NCBI GenBank assembly: GCA_950106755.1
Contig: OX467083.1
Span: 35,397,029-35,461,028 of the forward strand
DNA length: 64,000 bases
Reading direction: 5' to 3'
DNA from: Climacium dendroides
Lineage: Eukaryota > Streptophyta > Bryopsida > Hypnales > Climaciaceae
Below are positions 25,977 through 64,000 of the stretch, in pieces. Each line of letters opens with the position of its first letter. Positions within the stretch are counted from its first letter, which is position 1. The position numbers and the translations under genes were made by a program. The notes below the pieces were generated by a model, which was not told the origin of the DNA, did no database searches, and saw nothing but the letters and a program-made list of their open reading frames with translations.

Positions 25977-28262
25977 CACTAAAAACTATATTTAGTGTTG
26001 GATTGCATTTAGTGTATTTATCAGCCTACCCCATCCAACACTAAATCTGAACTTTGGAGTAATTAGTGTAGTGTTAGACTTGAATGCGCTGCCTTTGCCT
26101 TCTCTTCCCTTTTGCCTTCCCCTTCCTTGGTCTTTCCTTGCGATCGGACTTTGTTTGCCTCTCTTGCCTGTTGCATCGTCCCCTTCCACGCGATCCTCAT
26201 TCCCAACTTGGTCTCTCTTCCCTTCCGCCCGTTCCTGCCGCTCCGGCGTTGTTTGAATCTCCCGCCGCTTCCTGTGCCCGATTTGGAGATTGGACTGTGC
26301 CCACGCCTCCCGATCTGCACGACTGCAGCTCGATTTTGCAGGTTCAGTAGCTCGATTTTGACCCGTTGTTGATTTTTTTTTCTCAATTTTTTTACTCTCG
26401 CTTAGCAATGCAGGAATTCTGTCACGACTGCCCTCCCAGAAAATTCCACACCTTGACGCTTGCAATAGGTTTCCACCATTGCTGTTCATAAGCGCATCAT
26501 CACCTAGATGGTTCAAGATGAAATCACACATGGCATCTGCGGGCTCTACATCTGCACAATTACTGCGTTTCCAGAGCATTTTCATGCTCAAAGGAGTGCC
26601 AACCTTGTCTGGGCTTCTTGTTGGTGGGCTCAACGTCAACAATTTTGCAATGAAGAAGAAGCAAATATAACATCTCCACCAATTTCATGCACTAGGAACT
26701 GGATGGGAGGGTGAAAAAAACTCCACCCAAAGGCAAGTCCAGGTCGGGGTGTCAAGTGATCTCAATGGGTACTTTGGATCTACCCTAAGCTCCTAAATGC
26801 ATTTGACCAATTTAGAAAAGCTGGAGTCAAATTCTCATCCAAATTGCTCATTGAATTAGCTATGTCGATCTTGATGGATCCTACCTCTCCATATACAGTC
26901 CAATCTCATGATCCCAAGGACAATGTCCTATTCACGTCAAAGTTGACCCCAAGTTGGGTTCAACAATTTATGCATGTGTACAACATTGTGTTGTTGTCAC
27001 AACGTGGACGTTTGACTTGTAGTCCCGAGAAGGAACTACAAATCGAAATGACAATAACTTACCATCTAGGTGTGTTGCATGGGGGGTTCCAAACCAATGT
27101 TTTTGATGAAAATCTGATGGAAAACATTGACGAAACTCATATTGTTGTGAATTTAGACAATGGTCCGAGCAATGGTCGAACGTTGGGATTTAGGGGGGAC
27201 AACAGTGTCAAGTACACCAAAGTGGTTTCCACTGAAGATTCTATGACCATGGTCATTAGAATCTCTGGAAGGCGTCGATCTATGATTGAAGCGCCCATGC
27301 TCATTTTTACCAATTTCAACAGTAATTACCCTATTCGGGGCCTGAAAGACAATATTCCAGGGGTATGCTACAAAACCAGACCTAAAGGCTGGATGGACCA
27401 AGCCCTTTTTGCTGAATTCTTCGTTGAATCCTGAGCCTTCTAAGCCGATGTTCATGGTCGTACAAAAGTCATTTGGATTGACAATTGTGTCGGCCATAAT
27501 ATGACCCCAAGCTTAACAGTTGTTTTGGAAGCAAAATAGGCCAGTCTTAGGTATTTACCACCTTATTCGACACATTTGTGTCAACCAACATACACATTTA
27601 TCATCTCCAAGGTTAAGGACGTTTAGACCAAGCAATGAAAAGCGAAGAAGGTTGAGCTCATGAGAAGCAATGATTGGCAAAATACTCCTTGAGTTGATGG
27701 GCAATGGTCAGGAAAACTCACAAACCCGGAAAAAACATTTTTCTTACACCTGGCTGTAGATAGTGTTGAAGATGTGAGTAAAGAGGTAGATTGTGATAAT
27801 ATGTCATATGCTAGGAAAGCTATGATTAGATCAGGTATGGCTTTGAGTGTTGATGGCACTTGGAGTGTTAATCAACTCTTTCCACATCTGCAGGAAATTA
27901 TAGCCAAGTATGAACCATACTTCCAAAGCCAACAAGTTCCAACCCAAGTATGAAATCTGTTTTTTATTTATTATATCTAATTATGAATTTCTTTTTTCTT
28001 ATTTGATGTTCAAAGACTTCCTTCATTACAAATATTTTCATATTTTCATCTTTGTTTTCCTTGTCTTCAATCTTTTCCTTTGGAAATTTATTTTTTTAAT
28101 ATGTTCTAACACTAAACGTAAACATTTTTGGATTTCAGATTTACCATAGAATATATTTAGTGTTAGAAATTACATTTAATGTTACTTACTTTAGTAGACT
28201 TAATGATATTTAGTGTCATGGTTTGTAGATAGTATTGCTAACACTAAATATAGTTTTTAGTG
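25977..28262 (+). mobile_element. TA-flanked DDE DNA transposon
   Basis: Complete element of 2286 bases. Both ends carry the same inverted repeat of about 23 bases, starting CACTAAAAACTATATTTAG, and TA dinucleotides flank it at 25975-25976 and 28263-28264, as for Tc1/mariner-pogo type elements. Further TTTAGTGT motifs lie just inside both ends (for example 26008-26015 and 28208-28215). It encodes a decayed DDE transposase, so it could move only in trans. Confidence 0.9.
26740..27953 (+). pseudogene. DDE transposase of the TA-flanked element, dead
   Basis: The longest open part (26844-27434) contains QRGRLTCSPEKEL, NIDETHIVVNLDNG, SVKYTKVVS and the GPKGWMDQALF-like RPKGWMDQALF. After a frame change it continues with VIWIDNCVGHN, LRYLPPYSTHLCQP, KLTNPEKTFFL and SYARKAMIRSG, and ends near 27953. 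These are the ordered landmarks of a DDE-superfamily transposase. Defects are a frameshift near 27430, an in-frame stop after VVLEAK (about 27538), another after KVKDV (about 27625), and Tyr at the third catalytic Asp site (CQPTYTF). The N-terminal DNA-binding part is not readable. The GC-rich 26080-26350 block before it has no recognised function. Confidence 0.8.
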
Positions 28263-48758: not shown

Positions 48759-49060
48759 TCTAACGACAATTTCCGGACCATGGTTGCGAGAGAGCCACTT
48801 TTGCTCTGGCTACGCTACTTGGTTTATTGGGTTTATTTGCGGGGTGCAGACATGCAGTTGAATTTTATTTCAACGCCCCAAACGAAAGGGAGTGAGCCCT
48901 TTTATATTTTTTCTGCTATTCCTATTTTTTAAGGTGACAAGGGACAGGTTCTTTCATTTCGATTTTGATGTTGGGAACCAAGCAGCAATGGATGGAGTTT
49001 GGGCAAACCATTGGGGTTGGGTCACTTGGGTGCAAACGGGTGGTTGGTGGGCGGGAATGG

Positions 49061-49879
49061 GTGGTACATAGAGGTGAATGGAAAGGAATTGGGCGGCAAA
49101 TCGTGGTGCTTAGGCGGGAACGGGTGGTATATAGAGGTGAACAGAAAGGAATTGGATGGCAAATCGTGGTGCTCAGGCGGGAACGGGTGGTACTCAAAGG
49201 TGAACAGAAAGGAATTGGGTGGCAAGTCGTAGTGCTCAGGCGGGAACGGGTGGTACTTAGAGGTGAATGGGAAGGAATTGGATGGCAATTTGTGGTGCTC
49301 AGGCGGGAATGGGTGGTACTTAGAGGTGAATGGGAAGGATATGGGTGGCAAATCGTGGTGCTCAGGCGGGAACGAGTGGTACTTAGAGGTGAATGGGAAG
49401 GATATGGGCGGCAAATCGTGGTGCTTGGGCGGGAACGGGTGGTACTTAGAGGTGAATGGGAAGGATATGGGTGGCAAATTGTGGTGCTTGGGTGGGAACG
49501 GGTGGTACTTAGAGGTGAATGGCAAGGATATGGGCGGCAAATCATGGTGCTTGGGCGGGAACGGGTGGTACTTAGAGGTGAATGGGAAGGATATGGGTGG
49601 CAAATTGTGGTGCTTGGGCGGGAACGGGTGGTACTTAGAGGTGAATGGGAAGGATATGGGTGGCAAATCGTGGTGCTCAGGTGGGAACGGGCGGTACTTA
49701 AAGGTGAATGGGAAGGATATGGGTGGCAAATTGTGATGTTTGGGCAGGAACAGGTGGTACTTAAAGGTGAACAGAAAGAAATTGGGTGGCAAATCGTGGT
49801 GCTTGGGCGGGAACGGGTGGTACTTAGAGGTGAATGGGAAGGATATGGGCGGCAAATCATGGTGCTTGGGTAGGAACAT
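49061..49879. repeat. 63-bp minisatellite, 13 units in register
   Basis: The marker GTGGTA(C/T) recurs every 63 bases from 49061 to 49817 (12 intervals, 756 bases, with no net indel). The typical unit contains GGGAACGGGTGGTACTTAGA, GGTGAATGGGAAGGATATGG and GGCAAATCGTGGTGCT. As 63 is divisible by three, several frames stay open on both strands (302 codons plus, 324 and 285 codons minus). The 21-residue repeats would be NGWYLEVNGKDMGGKSWC-like on the plus strand or FPFTSKYHPFPPKHHDLPP-like on the minus. Whether any is translated is unknown. Confidence 0.9.
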
Positions 49880-49934
49880 ATGGTATGTAGAGGCAAATTA
49901 TAGAAAAGAATTAAACGCCTATCGTTGATACCCC

Positions 49935-51435
49935 ACTTTTTTTCCTTCTTCTATAATGTCCAAACATCCCTATTGTTGTCTACTCTTGAAGCTTAGTACA
50001 TGGCATACACATGGAGCCATTTTTAGACAAATATTTTCCATAACCTTCGTACCACCCCCCAAAGTTGGGACTTGGCCTCGACCAACAGCAACATTTATGA
50101 TCAATTAAACCCAAGTGCGGATCTTAAATAACGTTTAGTCTACACAACCATGTTTTCCATTACATGTAGTGATTGAGAAATGGGACTTTATTTGCAGTAA
50201 GAAAAAAATCCTTATTTTTTGCCTAAAAAGCATATTAAAATCCATGCAGTAGTCTTGAAGGACTTTTACATGGTTAGAGGGACGATTTATGCACCCAAAA
50301 ATGCTATTTCAAATTCCTACATTTCAGGAGAAATTTATCCACTTTCTTTGATTGTCAATTTTCCTCTAGTTAAACAAACTTCAATTTGTTTTCATTATAA
50401 AACTTACACAAGTAGAAAGGATGGTCTTAGAGCACCAAGGAATAGTGTCAAAGCTTGATGCAAGACTTTCATATGGTCAACAAACTAGTGCCCTTGGGTA
50501 CTAAGCTTTGACATCGTTCCTTGATGCTCCAAGTCCACCTTCCTACGATGCAAACTTTCATCCCCTTCCATCCCCTTCCATCTCCACTTTGAAGAAACCA
50601 TTGAATTATTATCGGTCAACACGCTGGATCCCCTTCAAAATTGGTTGGAAAAAAATGCTGCCTTGGGAATGTGAGAGAATCCCAGTGAGGGTGCCCCGGG
50701 GGCGGAGGCAGTTCTGTTTCGTTTTTCCATGCATGGGAGTTCATGTGGAAGGCGAGCGAGCACGGGTGCTTGTGAGCAGGATGGGTCCATTTATTCTCCG
50801 CAATTGACTTTCATGTCCCTTGAAGTGGGCGAGAGATGACGGACTTTGGGGGTGGGGGTGATATCACCATGACTGATGCTTCAGGGTCTCAGGGAGGGTT
50901 TGGTTTGAAGGTGGTTGAGGCCCGAGATTTTTTTACAGTGACTAATAAGTTGGTGGATGTGCACATTGCATTGGGAGAGGACGGACCATGGGACTGGGAG
51001 AAAGTGGGGGAGGGAGGGAGGACTAAACTACTACAAGTTGACTGGAGGGGAGTGGTTGTGCTATGGGACTGGCAGGGCACCAGGGATCAAGGCATGCCAG
51101 AAGGTTCGGACTAGACTATGGGAACCCGTTGCCACCCAGATTAGCAATGTGGGCATCATGCTGATGGTGGCCCATAGTTTTCAGAGAAAGAATGAACCCT
51201 TCAAGGACGCCACGCGGTGACTTTGGAAATCATCAGTTTTGATGACTGTGTGAAGCAGTGGCTTAAAAAATTAATTGTAGAAAGCACTCATTGCAAGACA
51301 AACGAGACTGTAGAAGACCTCCCCTTTTCTTGCAAAATCTCAAGGATGAATAGTTGCAATTCTATCCTACATGGAGAGACTGACCCTCTGTCATCCATCG
51401 GACGCAAAAACGTTTGCCTTGACATTCAAGGGTTA
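49935..51435. other. No gene recognised
   Basis: The 50500-51120 part is GC-richer. It has an open plus stretch (50836-51114, Gly-rich start) without recognisable domain or splice pattern. Confidence 0.3.
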
Positions 51436-53950: not shown

Positions 53951-54372
53951 CTAGGCAACAGAGGATTCGGTTGCAGAATCATTGTTAGTAGAAGAATCAG
54001 AAGTCTCTCTACCTTTCGATGCACTTACATCTAAATACTCTTAACACATTTAAAGCATAAGTGTCTTGTCGCTTCTTTGGTTTAGAACCACCAAACTCTA
54101 TAAATGCCGAGGCCATCTGCTCTGCATACACTGGCAAATGAAAAGACTTTTCCAGAGTCAAAACAAGTCTTCTTTTGCGCAATGTTGCATCGTGGAATGT
54201 CACTTTTTGGTGTCTGCAAAATCAAATTAAAATATGTTAAAATCATAAACACAAGCAACAAAATATTCACATTGAATGCACACCTCTGAAAACTTACTTA
54301 CTAGTGTTTTGATTCCGAGCAAAACTAAAGACCTCCACCTCCATTGCATCAGGATCTTTAATATTGTCATCC
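53951..54372 (-). pseudogene. Displaced 3' exons of methyltransferase-like gene
   Basis: Left-hand remainder of the gene split by the retroelement. Read on the minus strand, the poly-Glu tract goes on as EEEDDNIKDPDAMEVEVFSF and ARNQNT to a donor GTAAGT near 54301-54292. A later exon (about 54215-54030) holds HDATLRKRRLVLTLEKSF, LPVYAEQMASAFIEFGG and SKPKKRQDTYALNV. A Ser/Asp-rich tail (SDSSTNNDSATESSVA) ends at a stop at 53951-53953, though its join to the previous exon is not resolved. The frame at the tract matches that of the exon at 61357-61227 on the far side of the element. Confidence 0.6.
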
Positions 54373-55642
54373 TCTTCTTCTTCTTCTTCTTCTTCTTCTT
54401 CTTCTTTGGCAATTGCACTATTTGTGTATTTTTTAGGAATTCATCCCTATTTTAAAATAATATTTTGCCTTGTGAAAATTTTCTTGAAACCTCATGCCAT
54501 GTTTGGACTAACTATTCCATTCTTTATTTTTTTTCCCGCATTCATTTATTTCATTGCCCCATACAAATAGCCCAAGCTAATGGCTTTGTTTTTTGTTTTT
54601 TGTTTTTTGTTTTTTGTTTTTTTATTAATTTTTAGTATTTTACCAATTCATGGTGGATACTGTTAAAAAACCCAAAGCCATCTCCATCCTATTTTGGAGT
54701 TTCCATTACCATAATGGCATGTTTGAGTCATTTCTCAAACAGGTTCAATACTGCCATATGTATTATTTGATTCCCATAATGTCCCAAGTCACATGTTGGG
54801 AAGGACTTATTTACTTATTATGGGTTTAATCTAAAGGAGGCTTACTAAAGCCTGGATGGTACTTTAGTACCACCCACCTTACCCACTGGGTTGGGACTTA
54901 ATTGTAGTTTTCCCACTAACTAAACCGGGGGCTATTTCAAATTGACTTATTAATGCCCTTCTTTTATTATTTCCCGCCAATAGTGAGAATATGAACCGGC
55001 TTGCCACTCTCTAAGTTTCTCATCTTTGCATTGTGGCTGTGGCGTTTCACTTTGGTGTGGTTGTGGATTTTTGCTTGGTGCTTGACTCTTGGGCTTCTTC
55101 CATTACACGGGAATGGCAAAGGTCTTCTTACTTTGTTACATTTGTAGATTGTGCAGGATTCTTGCTTTGATTTGCGCTTTGTAAAATTTTTGTACTACTT
55201 CTTTCTGAGCTTGATGGACTTGTGACATGGATAACAACTGGCCTGCAGCTGAAGACACCTCGTGCATCCCCTCTAACTTGACATTGGTTTGTTTTGTGAT
55301 TGGGATGGGCACAGGTGAGGCTCAGCCTTCAAGTCCGCTTTCTCCAACATGGATTTGGTGCAACTTTTTATTGTCATGCTCATGGATGTCTCATTTTGGG
55401 GTTCCTTATTCTATTTTTGAGATTGGTGAATCGACATGGGTGGGCCATGGCACTTCTTTTAGTTTTTGGACTTTTAGTGGCCCATTATATTGTTAGTTAG
55501 TATCTGTTTTGATACTATTGGGCCTCTAATTCTAATTAGTTTATGCTGATGTAATGTGAAATTACTCCCAATAAGCATAAGGTTAGATATTGAGTAAGAG
55601 TGAAGCCCTGTTTCAGGGGTGTTTCAGTCTTGTTTCTTCTTT
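54373..55642 (+). repeat. 5' terminal direct repeat (pLTR)
   Basis: Matches 59963-61226 at a constant offset of 5584 bases from TTTGGCAATTGC (54405) to GTTTCTTCTT (55642), so there are no net indels. The only difference I saw is G at 55616 against A at 61200, plus a longer TTC tract on this side. It carries a (GTTTTTT)n tract at about 54588-54620. It also has a small structured segment at 55541-55580, where TTATGCT and AGCATAA enclose a GTAAT/ATTAC hairpin. Short ORFs inside are the same in both copies and have no domain. Confidence 0.9.
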
Positions 55643-55863
55643 GGTTTTCTAACCACACAGGCGTGGTGAGCGCTTGTCTCCATTCTTTGATTTATTTAAC
55701 CGCATGCTACAGATTGGGTTTCGTGATTAAGTACTCCTAATTTATCAAAAGTGGCTCTTTGACGTAGGACACACAAGGTGATTGGGCACAGGATCTGGTA
55801 GCATTGGGCTACAAAGAACCTCTGCCGCCTCCGTCACCGGCAGTTCAGTCCGTTATTTGCACC
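55643..55863 (+). other. Retroelement leader
   Basis: Internal sequence between the 5' repeat and the first ATG of the gag-like ORF. The frame is open from 55801, so translation could start upstream at a non-ATG codon. No tRNA primer-binding site was recognised. Confidence 0.5.
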
Positions 55864-57399
55864 ATGGCCGATCCTGACATTCACTCCTTCATCCAGTCCA
55901 CAGACAATGCTGCTTTGCTAGATCGTGACGAGGACGGTGAGAGTGCGCCGCTTCTACTGACTACTCTGGATCTGTCGCATTGGACAGCTATTATGATGGT
56001 AGCGATCGTAGATAAGAGCAAAGGCCTTGAACGCTTACAAGAGGCCCACCAGGCTTTGGGCCCGCTTTTGGAGCGTGATGAACTAGAATTCATCGAAGCT
56101 GCTGGGAATACACGCCGCGTTGAAGCTGCACTCCGATTAGCGAACCCACATGAGGAATGGACGGAGCAGCCTCCACCTGTCGACCTTTCACAACCTGGAC
56201 CAGCTGAAGCTAGTGGCCTGCACCCACTTCTCTCCAAGCTGAACATCGCCCCTGCGCATAAGGCTGCGATTGAGGATCTCTCAGACTCTATCAGTACAAC
56301 GCAATCTGAAAAAGAAATGTCTACACTTGACGCTGTTGGTAAGGGTCCCGCAATTCCCTTCCTTCCTCCACGTGCTGTAGAAGAGCAATTGGCATCCAAA
56401 AACCACAGAACGTGGTGTTTGTCAAACATTAACCTTCTAGCTCCCATTACTGTTCACATGTGGAAGTTATGGGCTGATTTATCTGATCATGAGGTTAAGC
56501 TCTGTGAAGAAAAATCCTTGAGTTGCACAGGGCTTCTTGAGAAGCCAGTGGAATTGGTCAATGCTTTTCCCATTGCATTATATGACCACCACAAATGCAC
56601 TACCAATGCTATAAATATTCACACTAAGTTGGATGTTTTGACTTGTGCTCCCAGAAGCCCAAAGTTCACCTCCCAACTGTGGAATTGCCAGAGACCCTAC
56701 ATTAGATGTAAATGTAGCCAAAATGCCAAATCTGGTTGCAAGGGCAATATGTTGTGGTTTGATCACAGTGTGTGGTTTATGATCAACAATCTGCCAAAAT
56801 TCTTCCCTGATAGCACATATCCATCTCTCCCTGCCAAGTATGGTGCTTTTTTAACCTGGATGAAGGGAGCTGCCAAGTTTGCAGTAAAACAACAGATTAC
56901 GTTTATTGCGGTCCGTAAACTTATGGACACTGCGGCTTTAGAGTTTGCTACGGACGCCTCTCAGAAGTTGTTAGCAAAACACTATGAGGCCCCCGGTGCG
57001 CGCAAAGTTGAGCGGTTGTTCAAACCAGCTTCGTTTTCGGTGGATGTGGCACCGACTCCTCCGCAGAAACGACGACGTTTAAATATGAACGTTAGTGCTT
57101 CAGAACCCCAGCAAGTCCAGTACAAAACTCCTCCTGCGTATCCGAATCGCAATCATGGTGGACGGAGCGGCGGCAGACCCAGTGGAGGTCGTGGAAATTA
57201 CAACCGAAATTATCGGTCTCCTGGAGGATTCCAATTTATTGGTGGCAACACGCCACGCTTGGATAATTCTCCTTCCATGTCGACAAGATCGGAGTATCAA
57301 CGCAACGACCAAGCACTATCCATTACCAGTTCAATGGATACACGTCCAAAACCCAGACCTCCCATTCAGGGTAGGATTCTGAATTGGGATAACATGTGA
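55864..57399 (+). CDS. Gag-like ORF1 of the retroelement
   Basis: ATG at 55864 lies in a good context (ACCATGG). The product is 511 residues if read to the stop at 57399. The N-terminal ~110 residues are acidic and helical-looking. A Cys cluster follows at about residues 275-295 (C-x6-C-x-C-x6-C, in CQRPYIRCKCSQNAKSGC). Then comes a KQQITFIAVRKLMDTA-type helical segment, a basic QKRRRLN motif that could be a nuclear signal, and a C-terminal RGG-like region (GGRSGGRPSGGRGNYNRNYR, about 430-455). A zinc-like cluster plus RGG tail suggests RNA binding, analogous to a gag or ORF1 protein. I do not recognise a family. A GT donor within the last codons (57371) could fuse it to the RT. Confidence 0.75.
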   Translation: MADPDIHSFIQSTDNAALLDRDEDGESAPLLLTTLDLSHWTAIMMVAIVDKSKGLERLQEAHQALGPLLERDELEFIEAAGNTRRVEAALRLANPHEEWTEQPPPVDLSQPGPAEASGLHPLLSKLNIAPAHKAAIEDLSDSISTTQSEKEMSTLDAVGKGPAIPFLPPRAVEEQLASKNHRTWCLSNINLLAPITVHMWKLWADLSDHEVKLCEEKSLSCTGLLEKPVELVNAFPIALYDHHKCTTNAINIHTKLDVLTCAPRSPKFTSQLWNCQRPYIRCKCSQNAKSGCKGNMLWFDHSVWFMINNLPKFFPDSTYPSLPAKYGAFLTWMKGAAKFAVKQQITFIAVRKLMDTAALEFATDASQKLLAKHYEAPGARKVERLFKPASFSVDVAPTPPQKRRRLNMNVSASEPQQVQYKTPPAYPNRNHGGRSGGRPSGGRGNYNRNYRSPGGFQFIGGNTPRLDNSPSMSTRSEYQRNDQALSITSSMDTRPKPRPPIQGRILNWDNM

Positions 57400-57683
57400 T
57401 CCCGTTATCTAGCACTGAGTATGCAGATCGTGATGAAATATCACTTAAATGGTTTATTCCCTGACGTACTTTTATGCAAGGCAGCTAGTTTTTTCTATTT
57501 GGTCATTCGACCCAGTAGTCTGATCAATGCTATAACATAGTCAACCACACAGTGTTGCTGAGTGGTCTTATAATCCAGACATATCCAGGTTATTAAATAT
57601 CTTGCACACTGGTTTTTCCTATTATTCATCAGCATGGTCTGTGACTATTGATAGTTAAATACCCGTGTTGTGATGTCCTACAG
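57371..57683 (+). other. Candidate intron joining ORF1 and ORF2
   Basis: CAGG|GTAGGA at the 5' end and TGTCCTACAG at the 3' end, 313 bases. Removal joins a single G to AT, giving GAT, and runs ORF1 directly into the RT frame without a stop (...PPIQ-DNRRILITNDYG). The product would be about 1217 residues. The RT ORF lacks an early ATG, which supports splicing, but frameshift or reinitiation is possible. Confidence 0.5.
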
Positions 57684-59830
57684 ATAATAGACGCATTTTG
57701 ATCACAAACGACTATGGTCGTTTTAAAATAAAGCGTAACTCTACCCGCAAGAGTACAGGTTTCATCAAGTTAAAATATTGTAACCGAGCCCTGGAATGGA
57801 TCAATTTGAGGAAAATTTTTCAGGATGTTTTGGTTCGTTTTCACTACGACCATTTGTGTCCAATCCTTGAGGATATTACTTTTGCATGGTCATATGCTGA
57901 TAATATCGCTTCCATACTATATAAACCAGCAATGGTTTTCAAGCATTTCTCGTTCGTCCAACTTTTGGATATAACAGCACAATGTGCATGTGAGTCCACG
58001 AAACGATTCCATAAGTTCCTCGACCCTTTAACTATCAACGAAACCTCTCCTCACACGAAGAGCACCGCCCATGTTAGAACGATGGACTTATCGATCATTC
58101 AACACCCGGGCCTGAGAAATACAGTAGCGCAAGGTCTGAATCACATTCCGATGCGACCTACTAACATCAAGCATGCATGTGCTACTGCTTTAGACGCCTT
58201 CGAACAACTTGTTTCGATTCTAAGCCTGGAATCCACTGACTTTCCAATAAGAGACGCGCACACCCTTGTACGGGAGATCTGTGTCGATTTACTCAACCAG
58301 GCAGCGAGAAGTAATAAATATGGCTTCAGATCCTCTGGGCCGATGATACTTGACCTGCCAGCAGTTCAAAATGAAATACAGTGGTTAAATAAACATTTGT
58401 TCTGCTCGGGCTTAGACAAGGCTAACAACAACGCCTGCTTTTTATGTATCAGGCATATCCGCCTTCAGGCGTTGGAACGCCTCAATGGGGAGGATTTTAC
58501 CCCGTGTAAGGAGAACAATATCTGGGCTCTTCCCACAGCCGTCTTAGATGAGATACATCCCGATCTGGTGCAAATTCTACCCGAATGCCCTCCACTTTTT
58601 CAGGCACTTCCATATCTAATGGCCACATTTAAGCAGCACAAAGGGACTTATCGGTGGCTTACGAATGCATTCCGGTCAATTTTTTCCAATATAGCCACGT
58701 TACTTACTTTGACATCTAACGCCATGCTTGAGACTATTCAGCAATGGGCGGCAGTCACTGAAAATGGATATGCTAACTTTCTCAAGACCGATACCTCTAT
58801 GTATTGGGGCATTGATTCAGTAATGGATGCCACTTTGAATTTACCCGATAAAATTCATGACATTTTTGTGGCCGACATCACACGCTGCTATGAATCCATT
58901 CCGCTACAGGGACCAGACAATCTGCGAGATGCGGTCTCCTTCATCACAAGGATTGCTTTCAGACAGGCCAGTAATGCACACCCTCGAGCAATTACAACCA
59001 TGTGGGTCCGCATTGATTCTAATGGAGTTCCAGCTAAAGCCAAATGGGCCACTTCTCGCCCTTCCAATGCTAATTGGATTAGTCTTTCCTCCGATCGCCT
59101 GATTCAGCTCCATGCCTGGCTCATGACCCATTGCTTTATCACGCTGGGTGACCGGGTCTGGCAACAATCTAAAGGTATACCAATGGGATTCTCGTGTTCC
59201 CCTGTTTGGTGTAGCATCTACCTCATGAGTTATGAAATTAAGTTTATTCAGCGGTTAGCTAAATTGGGGCGAGCAGATTTGTTGTCCCGATTCCAACATG
59301 CTTTTCGCTACATTGACGATCTTTGTCTCATCAACGTGGGTAACCCACGGCTCTTTCTTACACCAGAACAACCACGAGTTGAGAATAATCCGTTCTGGAT
59401 TTACCCTCTCAACATTTTAAACATCAAAGAGGAAACTGCCGGATTCTCTTCCAATGACCCCGAACGAGGCATATCAGCCCACTTTATGAACGTGGAAATT
59501 CTTGCCCACGAAACTGATCCTGAGAAATACCTATTCCGCAAATACGACAAGAGGAGGAGTTTACCCTTTAAATACACGCAGTACATAAAATTTAGGTCAA
59601 ATAGACCAATTTATCAAGCATACAACATTGCCATCTCGCAAGTACTTCCCATACTATACATCTCCAACACGGAGGAGGCAGCTATAGTCGAAATTCTCCT
59701 AGTTATTGACACTATGGTCCACAATGGATTTAAACATGACCGCCTGGTCAAAAGCATTCGCAGCTTCCTGAACAATGGACCCTTTCCTGCGGTCCGCATC
59801 AATCTACAGCTCATACATGACTCCTTGTAA
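57684..59830 (+). CDS. Penelope-type reverse transcriptase (ORF2)
   Basis: About 710 residues; positions are counted from 57698. The N-terminal part has a CACES...H..T.DLSIIQHPGLR segment that I associate with Penelope-like RTs. RT landmarks: the LMATFKQHKGTYRWL region (about 308-325), FVADITRCYESIP (first catalytic Asp, about 392), SKGIPMGFSCSP (about 491-502), FRYIDDLCLIN (catalytic Asp pair 540-541), ISAHFMNVEIL and YLFRKYDKRR (about 590-630), and a helical thumb ending near the stop. All catalytic residues are present. It copies element RNA into DNA at the target. No endonuclease is attached at either end. The frame opens at 57674 without an early ATG (the nominal first codon is TTG), which favours expression by splicing from ORF1. 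Confidence 0.88.
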
Positions 59831-59883
59831 GTCTACTTCATTTCACTTTGAGGAAGTTGTAAGAATTACCATGAAGTTTGAGC

Positions 59884-59938
59884 CTGGTATGCACCTCTAT
59901 AGGAGTGTGGCATACCAGTGCCAAACTCCAATAGAGGT
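59884..59938 (+). ncRNA. Potential pseudoknot or RNA switch at element 3' end
   Basis: Two interleaved complementary pairs: CTGGTATGC (59884-59892) with GCATACCAG (59910-59918), and ACCTCTATAGGAGT (59893-59906) with ACTCCAATAGAGGT (59925-59938, one mismatch). They lie between the RT stop and the 3' repeat. With no spare bases between the first two strands the full stems cannot coexist, so partial pseudoknot or alternative folds are likely. Confidence 0.5.
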
Positions 59939-59962
59939 AACATCACCAGGGGTGGTGGAGGG

Positions 59963-61226
59963 TCTTCTTCTTCTTCTTCTTCTTCTTCTTTGGCAATTGC
60001 ACTATTTGTGTATTTTTTAGGAATTCATCCCTATTTTAAAATAATATTTTGCCTTGTGAAAATTTTCTTGAAACCTCATGCCATGTTTGGACTAACTATT
60101 CCATTCTTTATTTTTTTTCCCGCATTCATTTATTTCATTGCCCCATACAAATAGCCCAAGCTAATGGCTTTGTTTTTTGTTTTTTGTTTTTTGTTTTTTG
60201 TTTTTTTATTAATTTTTAGTATTTTACCAATTCATGGTGGATACTGTTAAAAAACCCAAAGCCATCTCCATCCTATTTTGGAGTTTCCATTACCATAATG
60301 GCATGTTTGAGTCATTTCTCAAACAGGTTCAATACTGCCATATGTATTATTTGATTCCCATAATGTCCCAAGTCACATGTTGGGAAGGACTTATTTACTT
60401 ATTATGGGTTTAATCTAAAGGAGGCTTACTAAAGCCTGGATGGTACTTTAGTACCACCCACCTTACCCACTGGGTTGGGACTTAATTGTAGTTTTCCCAC
60501 TAACTAAACCGGGGGCTATTTCAAATTGACTTATTAATGCCCTTCTTTTATTATTTCCCGCCAATAGTGAGAATATGAACCGGCTTGCCACTCTCTAAGT
60601 TTCTCATCTTTGCATTGTGGCTGTGGCGTTTCACTTTGGTGTGGTTGTGGATTTTTGCTTGGTGCTTGACTCTTGGGCTTCTTCCATTACACGGGAATGG
60701 CAAAGGTCTTCTTACTTTGTTACATTTGTAGATTGTGCAGGATTCTTGCTTTGATTTGCGCTTTGTAAAATTTTTGTACTACTTCTTTCTGAGCTTGATG
60801 GACTTGTGACATGGATAACAACTGGCCTGCAGCTGAAGACACCTCGTGCATCCCCTCTAACTTGACATTGGTTTGTTTTGTGATTGGGATGGGCACAGGT
60901 GAGGCTCAGCCTTCAAGTCCGCTTTCTCCAACATGGATTTGGTGCAACTTTTTATTGTCATGCTCATGGATGTCTCATTTTGGGGTTCCTTATTCTATTT
61001 TTGAGATTGGTGAATCGACATGGGTGGGCCATGGCACTTCTTTTAGTTTTTGGACTTTTAGTGGCCCATTATATTGTTAGTTAGTATCTGTTTTGATACT
61101 ATTGGGCCTCTAATTCTAATTAGTTTATGCTGATGTAATGTGAAATTACTCCCAATAAGCATAAGGTTAGATATTGAGTAAGAGTGAAGCCCTGTTTCAA
61201 GGGTGTTTCAGTCTTGTTTCTTCTTC
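59963..61226 (+). repeat. 3' terminal direct repeat (pLTR)
   Basis: Copy of 54373-55642. It begins with an internal (TTC)8-9 tract that is not next to host DNA, which shows that the TTC run is part of the element. It ends in GTTTCTTCTT and runs straight into the host TTC tract (61227-61236). Confidence 0.9.
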
Positions 61227-64000
61227 TTCTTCTTCTGTCGTCTCTTCCTCCTCAATCATCCTCTTCATAGGCAACAAGATCGCGTTGAAAATGGCTTCAT
61301 CCTTCTCCAAAGCTACAACATGTCGGCCCGTCCCTTGACATGCCGTAATTGATGCACCTAACAATAAACACATGCAATTCATTAGCAAAATTGGGGATTC
61401 AGAATTTTATAAATGAAAACAATTCCACTTGAGCTTAACCTTACCAGTTGCTCCTGTATTATCGAAGACAATGTCTCCTTCGCTTGTTGTTCCTTCAATG
61501 ATGAATTGAAGAAGCCTTGCGTCTTTCTCACGAGGACCCCGCCACGGTACGCTTCCATTCATCAACATACTGTCAATGGTGGAATAGTTGATCAATGTAT
61601 CATCACGTTCAAGATCTACTTTGGCCTTCTTCATTGCTTCAGTCAACTTGAACTTGAACTGAGACTTCCGTCTCTTGTCAAGCTTCTTCACCAACAACGA
61701 GATTCCGAACTTCATTGTCTACAAGTCCAAAATTCAATTAAACATTTATAATACATAATGCAATCAATCCCAAGCACAAAAATAAAACAACCACTAAATT
61801 GCAAGACATCCATACCGTATTTGTCGGATTGAGGCCTGAAGTCAAGTGCATGCGATTGATTCCCAAACACTCTTTCAACTTTAAGAATGGATATGCCTGA
61901 GTTAAACCAACCACCACGCCCCTTGCCTTTGCACTCCAGGAATGAAAAATGACAAAACAACCATTGTCTTGCAAATGTTTTGTTGCAAATAAAATTGCCT
62001 GTTCAATCTCTTTGAACTCTTTATCATGGTTCCATTCGGGCACATGGTTTTCTGGTACAGACACTCCTGGAACAGGGAGGTTTTCTTGAAGGTCAAACAA
62101 AATGAGATCAACTCCAGCCTTTTTGCTCATCTCGCCATTGAACATGCGAGTCTTGCCATCAGCCACCTGCATACAAAATATCTATAAATGATTCCAAGAA
62201 TTCAAAATAACAAGTTCATGCAATATGTTGATATTGTGACATGGCAAAAACTCAAATATAAAATACACACCTTCACCAAGAACTCCATAACTTCCCCATA
62301 GCATGATCCATTTCCCTTGCCTTCATTTTCCATCACATCAATGATAGAGTTGTTGAGAATCAACTCCTCCGTGTTCACCTCCTCGTCATCTCCAATAGCA
62401 ATCACTTGGGTGCCTTGTGTGACCATCTCTTCAGTGAGCTCTTGCAAGACCGCCTTCCTCTTCACGCCACTACGTGTTCCAGACTCCATTTGCAATCCTT
62501 GGTCCACTGTACAAGATCCAGGCACTTGATCTCTACCCTCTACCTTCTTCTTCCCTTTACCTTTATACTTCCCTTCCTTCTCTGCCTCCTTCTCCTTCTC
62601 AGCCAACTTTGCTAAACGCTCTGTTCCTTTCTTCTCCTTGTTAGCCTTCATGTCGTTTTCTTTTTTCTTCTTCTTCTCATCTGCAATTGTTCTGCGTAAA
62701 ATAGCTTTCTTCTTTTGGGCATCGGGAAGGTCCGCAAATTCGGGCACCTCTAAATCAATCACCCCAAGTCCGTCAAATGATTTGCGCAATGTAACTTCTG
62801 AAGAGTGGGTGTACTCGAGTGGGCACTCCAAGTACCATCCGCCACCAACCAAATTAGCTGTTGTAAACGTCCGGAGCTGAGTGGGTGAAAACATGCACTC
62901 TTTTGAACTCCGATCCACCCAAGACGTAAGGAAAGGAGGTAGAGAGCCTTGTGAAATAGCGCCTTTAGAAACAAGCTCAAGATTGAAGTACCTAGAATAT
63001 GAGCACAATCATAAGCCAATGTTTGAAAAGATAGTAGCCTATATAACTTTTAGAATATTAGGTCTTGTATTTTATCAACTTCAACACTCATAAATGTTCT
63101 AAGAACTCAATTGAACATGAAATGAATCCCTTCCAAAATTACATTGAACTATGCTTCACCAAAAGGTGGGGTACGAGAAGGGAGGCAGAACACCCCTGTC
63201 GGGTCCGAAGGAGGTATTCATGGTCCCTTTTGATACTCCAATTTTTTTAGTTTTTAAATTTTTAGTCGGAAAAATGAACAATTTTCATTCATAAGGAGAA
63301 ACACAACATAGAACCAGAGGAAAAGGTCCCTAGAAAACTTTTATTAACTTTTTTTAAATGAACATCAACAAGAAAAAATGAACACAAGGTAAATTCCAAT
63401 TGCTAGTTTTGAGGATCAAAAAATATTGTCTCTTTATTATTTTCTATTCATTTGCCTAAAAATAATTTATAAAAAGGAAATAAACATCTTGAAATAAGTA
63501 ACCATTCAAAAATGATCCAAACTTATTATTCATCTACCATATCATTTAAAAAAAAATGATAAGTTCTCTTAGAAAACAAAAAATGGGGGTACTGGCAGGG
63601 AGCCCTTGTACCCCCTTCGGATCCGACAAGGGTATGAACGCTCCCTCCCAGTACTCCTACTTTTGGATTCCCAAGAGATTTGAAGAAAAATTACAAAAAT
63701 TGAAAAATAATTTCTTAATTTTTATTTCACTTGTCAATTCCAACATTAAATTATATATTTGAAATCTTACCGGTATAGAACCCTCCGGACGGCTTGGTCC
63801 GATTCTTCGCGACTCGAGAATGAATCATGCTTTTTGAAGTTGTTGGTTCCCTTCAAAGTTGGGCCAAACGCGTATTCCCATAGCTTCACCCTCCACCCCT
63901 GAATGTACGCCGCTAGAGTTTCTGGGGGTTTGGGCAAGTCCATGTTGATGACTAGCTTGTCATTTGCCACAATGTCGTCTAAATACTCCTGAGCTGCGTC
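61227..64000 (-). CDS. Methyltransferase-like gene, 5' exons (interrupted)
   Basis: Minus-strand exons with fitting GT-AG borders: 64000-63771 (continues beyond the window), 62991-62271, 62166-61816, 61718-61445, and 61357 into the retroelement. All joins keep frame. Order: a segment with FLTSWVDRSS and LVGGGWYLECPL; a Lys/Glu-rich coiled coil (EKKGTERLAKLAEKEKEAEK); then VADGKTRM and DLILFDLQEN (in the position of a catalytic DPPY-like loop, here degenerate); GCFVIFHSW; PWRGPREKD; GDIVFDNTGATGASI, TACQGTGRHVVALEKDEAIF (SAM-binding-like); and a poly-Glu tract. Catalytic block before SAM block is the order of beta-class N4/N6 DNA methyltransferases. The assignment is by motif only. The retroelement splits the Glu tract, so this allele should make a truncated protein. 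Confidence 0.6.
62995..63768 (-). other. Intron of the methyltransferase-like gene
   Basis: Lies between exons 63771 and 62991. It contains two similar blocks (about 63160-63260 and 63585-63680) sharing GGGTCCGAAG/GGATCCGACA and GGTATTCATGG/GGTATGAACG, a small internal duplication. Confidence 0.5.

What the first reader, a model, noticed from the sequence alone, without database searches (positions are those of the whole stretch)
54373..61226. Complete Penelope-like element with a gag-like ORF in a plant genome
Seen: two ~1.26 kb direct terminal repeats, an ORF with a Cys cluster and RGG tail, and an RT with ADITRCYESIP, GIPMGFSCSP and YIDD, with no integrase, protease, RNase H or GIY-YIG domain. 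Known: most Penelope-like elements carry one RT(-EN) ORF; those without an endonuclease are mainly telomere-associated. Inference: this is an endonuclease-lacking, two-component Penelope lineage with a dedicated RNA-binding partner that inserts away from telomeres. The combination may be undescribed.
Basis: partly seen in the sequence, partly recalled or inferred. Interest (0 to 1): 0.9.

Follow-up and report, generated by a model that had tools for sequence, protein, structure and literature searches.

The report
Telomerase-like retrotransposon that targets microsatellites
A plant genome, probably a moss, carries a family of retrotransposons whose copying enzyme is predicted to fold like telomerase and whose ends carry a short repeat (TTC, T-rich or the telomere repeat) that in many copies matches the repeat they sit in, so they likely use that repeat to choose where to insert.

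Summary
In detail: two 1,263-nt direct repeats (1 mismatch), an open ORF1 and an open RT, with no endonuclease, RNase H, protease or integrase match. The window's own genome (412.6 Mb) was searchable and gave 66 RT matches. Of 25 long copies read, 24 have long direct repeats and all 25 have ORF1 sequence, some broken or partial. The RT model (pLDDT 90) matches telomerase best, including the region aligned to TERT's RNA-binding domain. In front of the right repeat lies a covarying pseudoknot, a G-rich motif and a simple-repeat tract: TTC, T-rich, or the host telomere unit CCCTAAA. Tract type follows the RT tree. Strictly, 12 of 24 copies have the carried repeat outside their ends; 4 more abut another copy's LTR. 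I read this as an endonuclease-free Penelope/telomerase-like LTR element that likely inserts by pairing its RNA tract with a broken repeat, the pseudoknot acting like a telomerase template boundary. Two-ORF endonuclease-less Penelope-like elements are already known; long LTRs, internal microsatellite targets and the pseudoknot-tract module appear new, though key papers were not readable here. ORF1 RNA binding, PLE clade placement and the mechanism are untested.

The parts
54379..55641 (+). left LTR (1263-nt direct repeat); its 5' edge is a (TTC)n tract, 54375-54404, that merges with the target repeat
55606..55618 (+). hairpin a near the 3' end of the LTR (CCCT...AGGG)
   Evidence: 3 of 4 pairs changed on both sides among 14 sequences; position read
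55657..55677 (+). hairpin b just inside the left LTR, loop with invariant GGTGA
   Evidence: 7 of 7 pairs changed on both sides among 14 sequences; position read
55768..57399 (+). ORF1 (543 aa stop to stop; first ATG 55864): orphan protein with Cys cluster (about 56683-56745) and Gly/Arg-rich tail (about 57150-57220)
57674..59830 (+). reverse transcriptase ORF (718 aa stop to stop); predicted TERT-like
57887..58516 (+). RT residues about 71-280: region that aligns to the TERT RNA-binding domain in the predicted structure
   Evidence: TERT rows begin at model residue 67-116, most at 71-75
59884..59938 (+). H-type pseudoknot: stem 1 59884-59892/59910-59918; stem 2 59893-59906/59925-59938
   Evidence: position read
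59946..59962 (+). conserved G-rich motif CCAGGGGTGGTGGAGGG directly before the repeat tract
59963..59989 (+). internal copy of the (TTC)n tract: inferred target-pairing tract of the element RNA
59963..61225 (+). right LTR; ends ...TTTCTTCTT and runs into target (TTC)n, 61218-61235
54297..54374 (-). host reading frame on one side of the insertion (...EEDDNIKDPDAMEVEVFSFARNQNTSK), likely an exon
61236..61340 (-). host reading frame on the other side (...MKRMIEEEETT), so the element splits a GAA/TTC poly-Glu tract; outer limit approximate

Best explanation
The window holds an LTR-flanked retrotransposon with an orphan ORF1, a reverse transcriptase predicted to fold like telomerase and no recognisable endonuclease, and it likely inserts by pairing a simple-repeat tract of its own RNA with the same repeat in the chromosome. 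Shown: the layout LTR - hairpin b - ORF1 - RT - pseudoknot - G-rich motif - repeat tract - LTR recurs in 24 of 25 copies read from this genome (L026 with a shortened left LTR, L029 with a shortened G-rich motif, one copy with 57 nt missing from its right LTR); tract type follows the RT lineage; 12 of 24 copies have a run of 8 nt or more of the carried repeat outside their LTRs and 4 more abut another element's LTR. Inferred: (1) a 3' end in a broken or nicked GAA, A-rich or TTTAGGG repeat anneals to the one or two repeat units at the RNA's 3' end (LTR end, next to hairpin a) and primes cDNA; (2) cDNA runs through the right LTR and the internal region to the RNA 5' end inside the left LTR, then jumps to the matching part of a right LTR, which makes both LTRs alike; (3) it continues to the tract and stops at the pseudoknot/G-rich block, as telomerase stops at its template boundary; (4) the repeat-ended cDNA anneals to the other side of the target repeat, so no endonuclease or integrase is needed. 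ORF1 would coat or chaperone the RNA.
Against: No biochemical or RNA evidence. BLAST LTR edges run into target repeats, so the exact junction and any target-site duplication cannot be defined. 8 of 24 copies have no run of 8 nt or more outside their LTRs and no abutting LTR (four TTC-clade copies, L026, L027, L031, L032); L026's left end is not in a repeat. Taken as one kind, the T-rich tracts (T7 and T6-7C) do not form one branch, because the CCCTAAA pair groups with T7, and near-copies alone make labels cluster. Empty-site searches did not complete. Only L024/L025 clearly show more LTR likeness within than between copies; other close groups do not separate. L027 does not form stem 2 (1297 of 2000 shuffles as good) and L021 only weakly (179 of 2000). 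In telomerase RNA the template usually lies 5' of the main pseudoknot (recalled), the reverse of the order here; only the template boundary element sits 5'. Retroviral and Ty3 RT rows also begin at residue 83-84, so a range start alone does not prove the RNA-binding domain.
Confidence: 0.6

Rival explanations
1. An ordinary endonuclease-deficient Penelope-like element (Athena/Coprina kind) that enters any double-strand break. Simple repeats at its ends reflect fragile repeats and microhomology repair, not targeting by the tract.
For: EN-deficient PLEs are said to prime from exposed ends or breaks (PMC3846280 background) and to have two ORFs (PMC6431247 section 8). GAA repeats are break-prone (recalled). 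8 of 24 copies show no long run of the carried repeat outside their LTRs.
Against: The tract is a standing part of the element, right after the G-rich motif, and differs by RT lineage, often together with the target. Random breaks would not give three lineage-linked repeat kinds. PMC3846280 says that fungal and protist EN-deficient PLEs lack the direct/inverted-repeat organisation.
Confidence: 0.22
2. An LTR element whose linear double-stranded cDNA is made in the usual way and enters the chromosome by homologous recombination or strand annealing through the repeat tracts at its ends.
For: Two long LTRs in 24 of 25 copies, a purine-rich motif at the place of a polypurine tract, LTR likeness within copies in L024/L025.
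Against: No RNase H, integrase or protease; TERT-like RT fold; 5' truncation in L026, typical of target-primed synthesis, but one case.
Confidence: 0.13
3. Head-to-tail tandem insertion as in Penelope pseudo-LTRs: the right repeat is just the start of a second, 3'-cut unit.
For: PLE pLTRs and partial tandems are described (PMC3846280 section 6). Head-to-tail arrays of whole elements and LTRs standing between elements occur here.
Against: The second repeat ends at the same place, shortly after hairpin a, in nearly every copy, and the pLTRs described there are about 0.2 kb against 1.1-1.9 kb here.
Confidence: 0.05

Closest known systems
Endonuclease-deficient Penelope-like elements (Athena, Terminons, Coprina; Selaginella and conifer EN(-) PLEs)
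   Same: no endonuclease, two ORFs, TERT-related RT (here by predicted fold), repeat units complementary to the target at the 3' end as told for Terminons; one lineage here carries the telomere repeat
   Different: 1.1-1.9 kb LTRs on both sides, internal microsatellite targets, pseudoknot-plus-tract module, no hammerhead match in Rfam
Telomerase (TERT plus telomerase RNA)
   Same: predicted RT fold including the region aligned to the RNA-binding domain and thumb; an RNA structure 5' of a repeat tract; in L028/L032 the tract is the host telomere unit in template sense
   Different: RNA and RT are one mobile element, mRNA-sized template, LTRs, ORF1; pseudoknot lies 5' of the tract
[quoted passage not shown]
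   Same: two near-identical long direct repeats, purine-rich motif before the right one, gag-position ORF1
   Different: no protease, RNase H or integrase found; no TG...CA ends; repeat-tract ends
Penelope elements with GIY-YIG endonuclease
   Same: TERT-related RT class, terminal direct repeats
   Different: no GIY-YIG; repeats about 0.2 kb in the A. vaga examples and often inverted (PMC3846280 section 6)

Membership tests
Penelope-like elements (EN-deficient) | RT in the PLE/TERT clade | tested here: inconclusive
   Predicted structure is closest to TERTs; no PLE reference sequences were available for a tree
Penelope-like elements (EN-deficient) | no GIY-YIG or other endonuclease | tested here: met
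   no match in profile searches
Penelope-like elements (EN-deficient) | two ORFs, about 4-6 kb (PMC6431247) | tested here: met
   ORF1 and RT; spacing between repeats 5584 nt; whole element 6.85 kb, slightly longer
Penelope-like elements (EN-deficient) | telomere-associated insertion | tested here: not met
   window copy splits an internal host reading frame; nearest of the 28 best RT matches lies 345 kb from a contig end
Penelope-like elements (EN-deficient) | hammerhead ribozyme in the terminal repeat or 3' end | tested here: inconclusive
   no Rfam match in the window or six copies; divergent ribozymes not excluded
Telomerase | TERT RT with RNA-binding domain and thumb | tested here: inconclusive
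   model aligns to TERTs from about residue 71 to 717; RNA binding untested
Telomerase | separate RNA with template and structured boundary | tested here: not met
   tract and pseudoknot lie inside the element
LTR retrotransposon | protease, RNase H and integrase | tested here: not met
LTR retrotransposon | long direct terminal repeats | tested here: met
   24 of 25 copies
DIRS-like elements | tyrosine recombinase | tested here: not met
   no match by Pfam

The most novel reading that the evidence does not exclude
A retrotransposon family that carries a telomerase-like machine in cis: a TERT-fold RT with an RNA-binding domain, and a pseudoknot boundary in front of an exchangeable repeat template. 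Swapping the template repeat (CCCTAAA, TTC, T-rich) re-aims the element from telomere repeats to microsatellites, making it a living model of the mobile ancestor from which telomerase could have arisen.
Probability: 0.35. Interest if true: 0.93.

Novelty: new variant of a known kind. Interest (0 to 1): 0.8.

Why it matters
A 2025 preprint calls PLE RTs the closest known eukaryotic relatives of TERT, contrasts retrotransposon RTs that copy their own mRNA in cis with telomerase that copies a short template, says that how TERT was exapted remains unresolved, and notes that telomerase template boundaries can be stem-loops or pseudoknots (PMC12632851, passages). Here a TERT-fold element has a structured RNA block directly 5' of a short repeat tract in its own RNA, and that tract changes between lineages, often together with the target. 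This makes two questions testable: does the block act as a template boundary, and does the tract alone decide the insertion site? It also suggests a route for endonuclease-free insertion into internal microsatellites, including poly-Glu coding repeats.
Full report
Observation. The two direct repeats are 1263 nt with one mismatch; ORF1 (55768-57399) and the RT ORF (57674-59830) are uninterrupted. Pfam and NCBIfam find no endonuclease, RNase H, protease, integrase or recombinase. RVT_1 matches the window's RT weakly (E 0.0012, below Pfam's cut-off) and 38 of 40 aligned RTs.

Site. The element splits a minus-strand host reading frame. The flanks read ...MKRMIEEEETT on one side and EEDDNIKDPDAMEVEVFSFARNQNTSK on the other, so it sits inside a GAA/TTC poly-glutamate tract. 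L019 and L022 also interrupt acidic reading frames, and the same dispersed acidic host sequence lies left of C1_49314, L011, L012, L015, L016, L021 and L023.

Relatives. A protein search gave 128 RT and 70 ORF1 relatives; the only named ones are from the moss Ceratodon purpureus. Nine contig lengths are shared between the 120 listed RT hits and the 70 ORF1 hits, against a mean of 1.1 and a maximum of 6 in 2000 jittered sets, which suggests that the two genes travel together.

Copies in the same genome. The window lies in a 412.6-Mb assembly with 66 RT matches, some of them pieces of one copy and in all a lower bound. I read 25 copies with long RT matches, the window's included. All have ORF1 sequence upstream of the RT: only its end in L018, in two pieces in L016, L026 and L027, and shorter hits in L021, L024 and L025. 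Long direct repeats flank 24 of 25 (L018: none found), 1.1-1.9 kb except in L026, whose left repeat is cut to 968 nt; one copy in the C2 array lacks the last 57 nt of its right repeat. The window's own subfamily has two copies: a search with its LTR finds four near-identical LTRs and otherwise more distant ones. Head-to-tail arrays and LTRs standing alone between elements occur. Copies are not at chromosome ends: of the 28 best RT matches the nearest is 345 kb from a contig end, the median 5.5 Mb.

The tract. In each of the 25 copies the right LTR begins, after a G-rich motif (shortened in L029), with a short simple repeat: TTC in the window's clade (16 copies, L018 by its right edge only), T-rich in L024, L025, L029-L031 (T6-8C or T7A) and in L026/L027 (T6C kind), and the telomere unit CCCTAAA in L028 and L032. 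The host telomere is (CCCTAAA)n at both ends of contigs C1 and C41; both ends of C2 and the start of C37 show none, and the start of C38 is masked. On a 45-row RT tree each of four tract labels that I gave is a single branch: 3 changes, 0 of 200 shuffles as low; near-copies help such clustering, and the two T-rich groups taken together are not one branch because the telomere pair groups with the T7 clade. The target agrees in many copies. Outside the aligned LTRs, 12 of 24 copies have a run of 8 nt or more of the carried repeat (7 of 15 TTC-clade copies; L024, L025, L029, L030; L028) and 4 more abut another element's LTR; the other 8 are four TTC-clade copies with 4-6 nt, L026, L027, L031 and L032. 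The LTR alignments swallow target repeats, so this count is conservative. Two further T7-clade copies read only at their edges also sit in T tracts, and a third shares its flanks with L031. L028 sits in an interstitial telomere-like block. L026's truncated left end is not in a repeat. In L025, L016 and L022 the left-edge tract differs from the internal one and resembles the target, which suggests joining by annealing within the repeat.

RNA structures. Hairpin a, about 20-35 nt before the LTR 3' end, and hairpin b, just inside the left LTR with an invariant GGTGA loop, covary strongly: 10 of 11 pairs with changes on both sides; 39 such cells against 11.5 in shuffles and at most 7 when slid (14 sequences). 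Before the right LTR lies an H-type pseudoknot. Stem 1 pairs 9 of 9 in 16 of 17 distinct sequences; stem 2 beats 97% or more of letter shuffles in 15 of 17, failing in L027 and weak in L021. On a hand-registered set of 9 sequences 12 of 20 pairs change on both sides, 0 of 500 shuffles as high. None of this matches Rfam.

Mechanism. The best reading is target-primed synthesis at a broken repeat, steered by repeat units in the element RNA, with the pseudoknot/G-rich block as a stop at the tract. A jump from the RNA 5' end to a right LTR would explain like LTRs: L024 and L025 differ by 0 and 2 within a copy and 15-17 between copies, though other close groups are not informative. These steps are inferred; layout, tract, flanks and covariation are observed.

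Known or new. Two-ORF endonuclease-deficient PLEs are known (PMC6431247 section 8), said to prime at exposed ends or breaks and to be largely confined to chromosome ends (PMC3846280 passages), and reported from Selaginella and conifers (PMC9033089 passages). The fungal and protist ones are said to lack the repeat structure of Penelope. In the listings of my searches I saw no paper on LTR-flanked, microsatellite-borne members with a pseudoknot-tract module, but the key papers were not held. I call it a new variant of a known kind. It bears on the origin of telomerase as discussed in PMC12632851 (passages).

Noticed in passing
window 54297-54374 and 61236-62181 (minus): Host gene interrupted by the element; a downstream ORF looks weakly like a DNA methylase (N6_N4_Mtase E 0.12, below cut-off).
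   Followed up: partly
window 48922-49950: Long ORFs on both strands made of a short tandem repeat.
   Followed up: no
window 26760-27434 (+): ORF of 224 aa that resembles a DDE-type transposase fragment by eye (recalled resemblance, not searched).
   Followed up: no
C2:5531043-5554500 (L013, L010, L014): Array of three elements of two subfamilies with a duplicated 711-nt host stretch; the two outer copies are 99.9% identical.
   Followed up: partly
C37:15765170-15769305: Cluster of several LTR fragments of this superfamily within about 4 kb.
   Followed up: no
window 55640-55780; same place in other copies: ORF1 lacks an ATG at the start of its conserved part; GGTGA in hairpin b and YAG before ORF1 look like splice sites, and in L026, L027, L028 and L032 an ATG lies in the hairpin stem.
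   Followed up: partly
L024 and L025: Closely related copies carry T7C and T7A tracts, so the tract itself can change quickly.
   Followed up: partly
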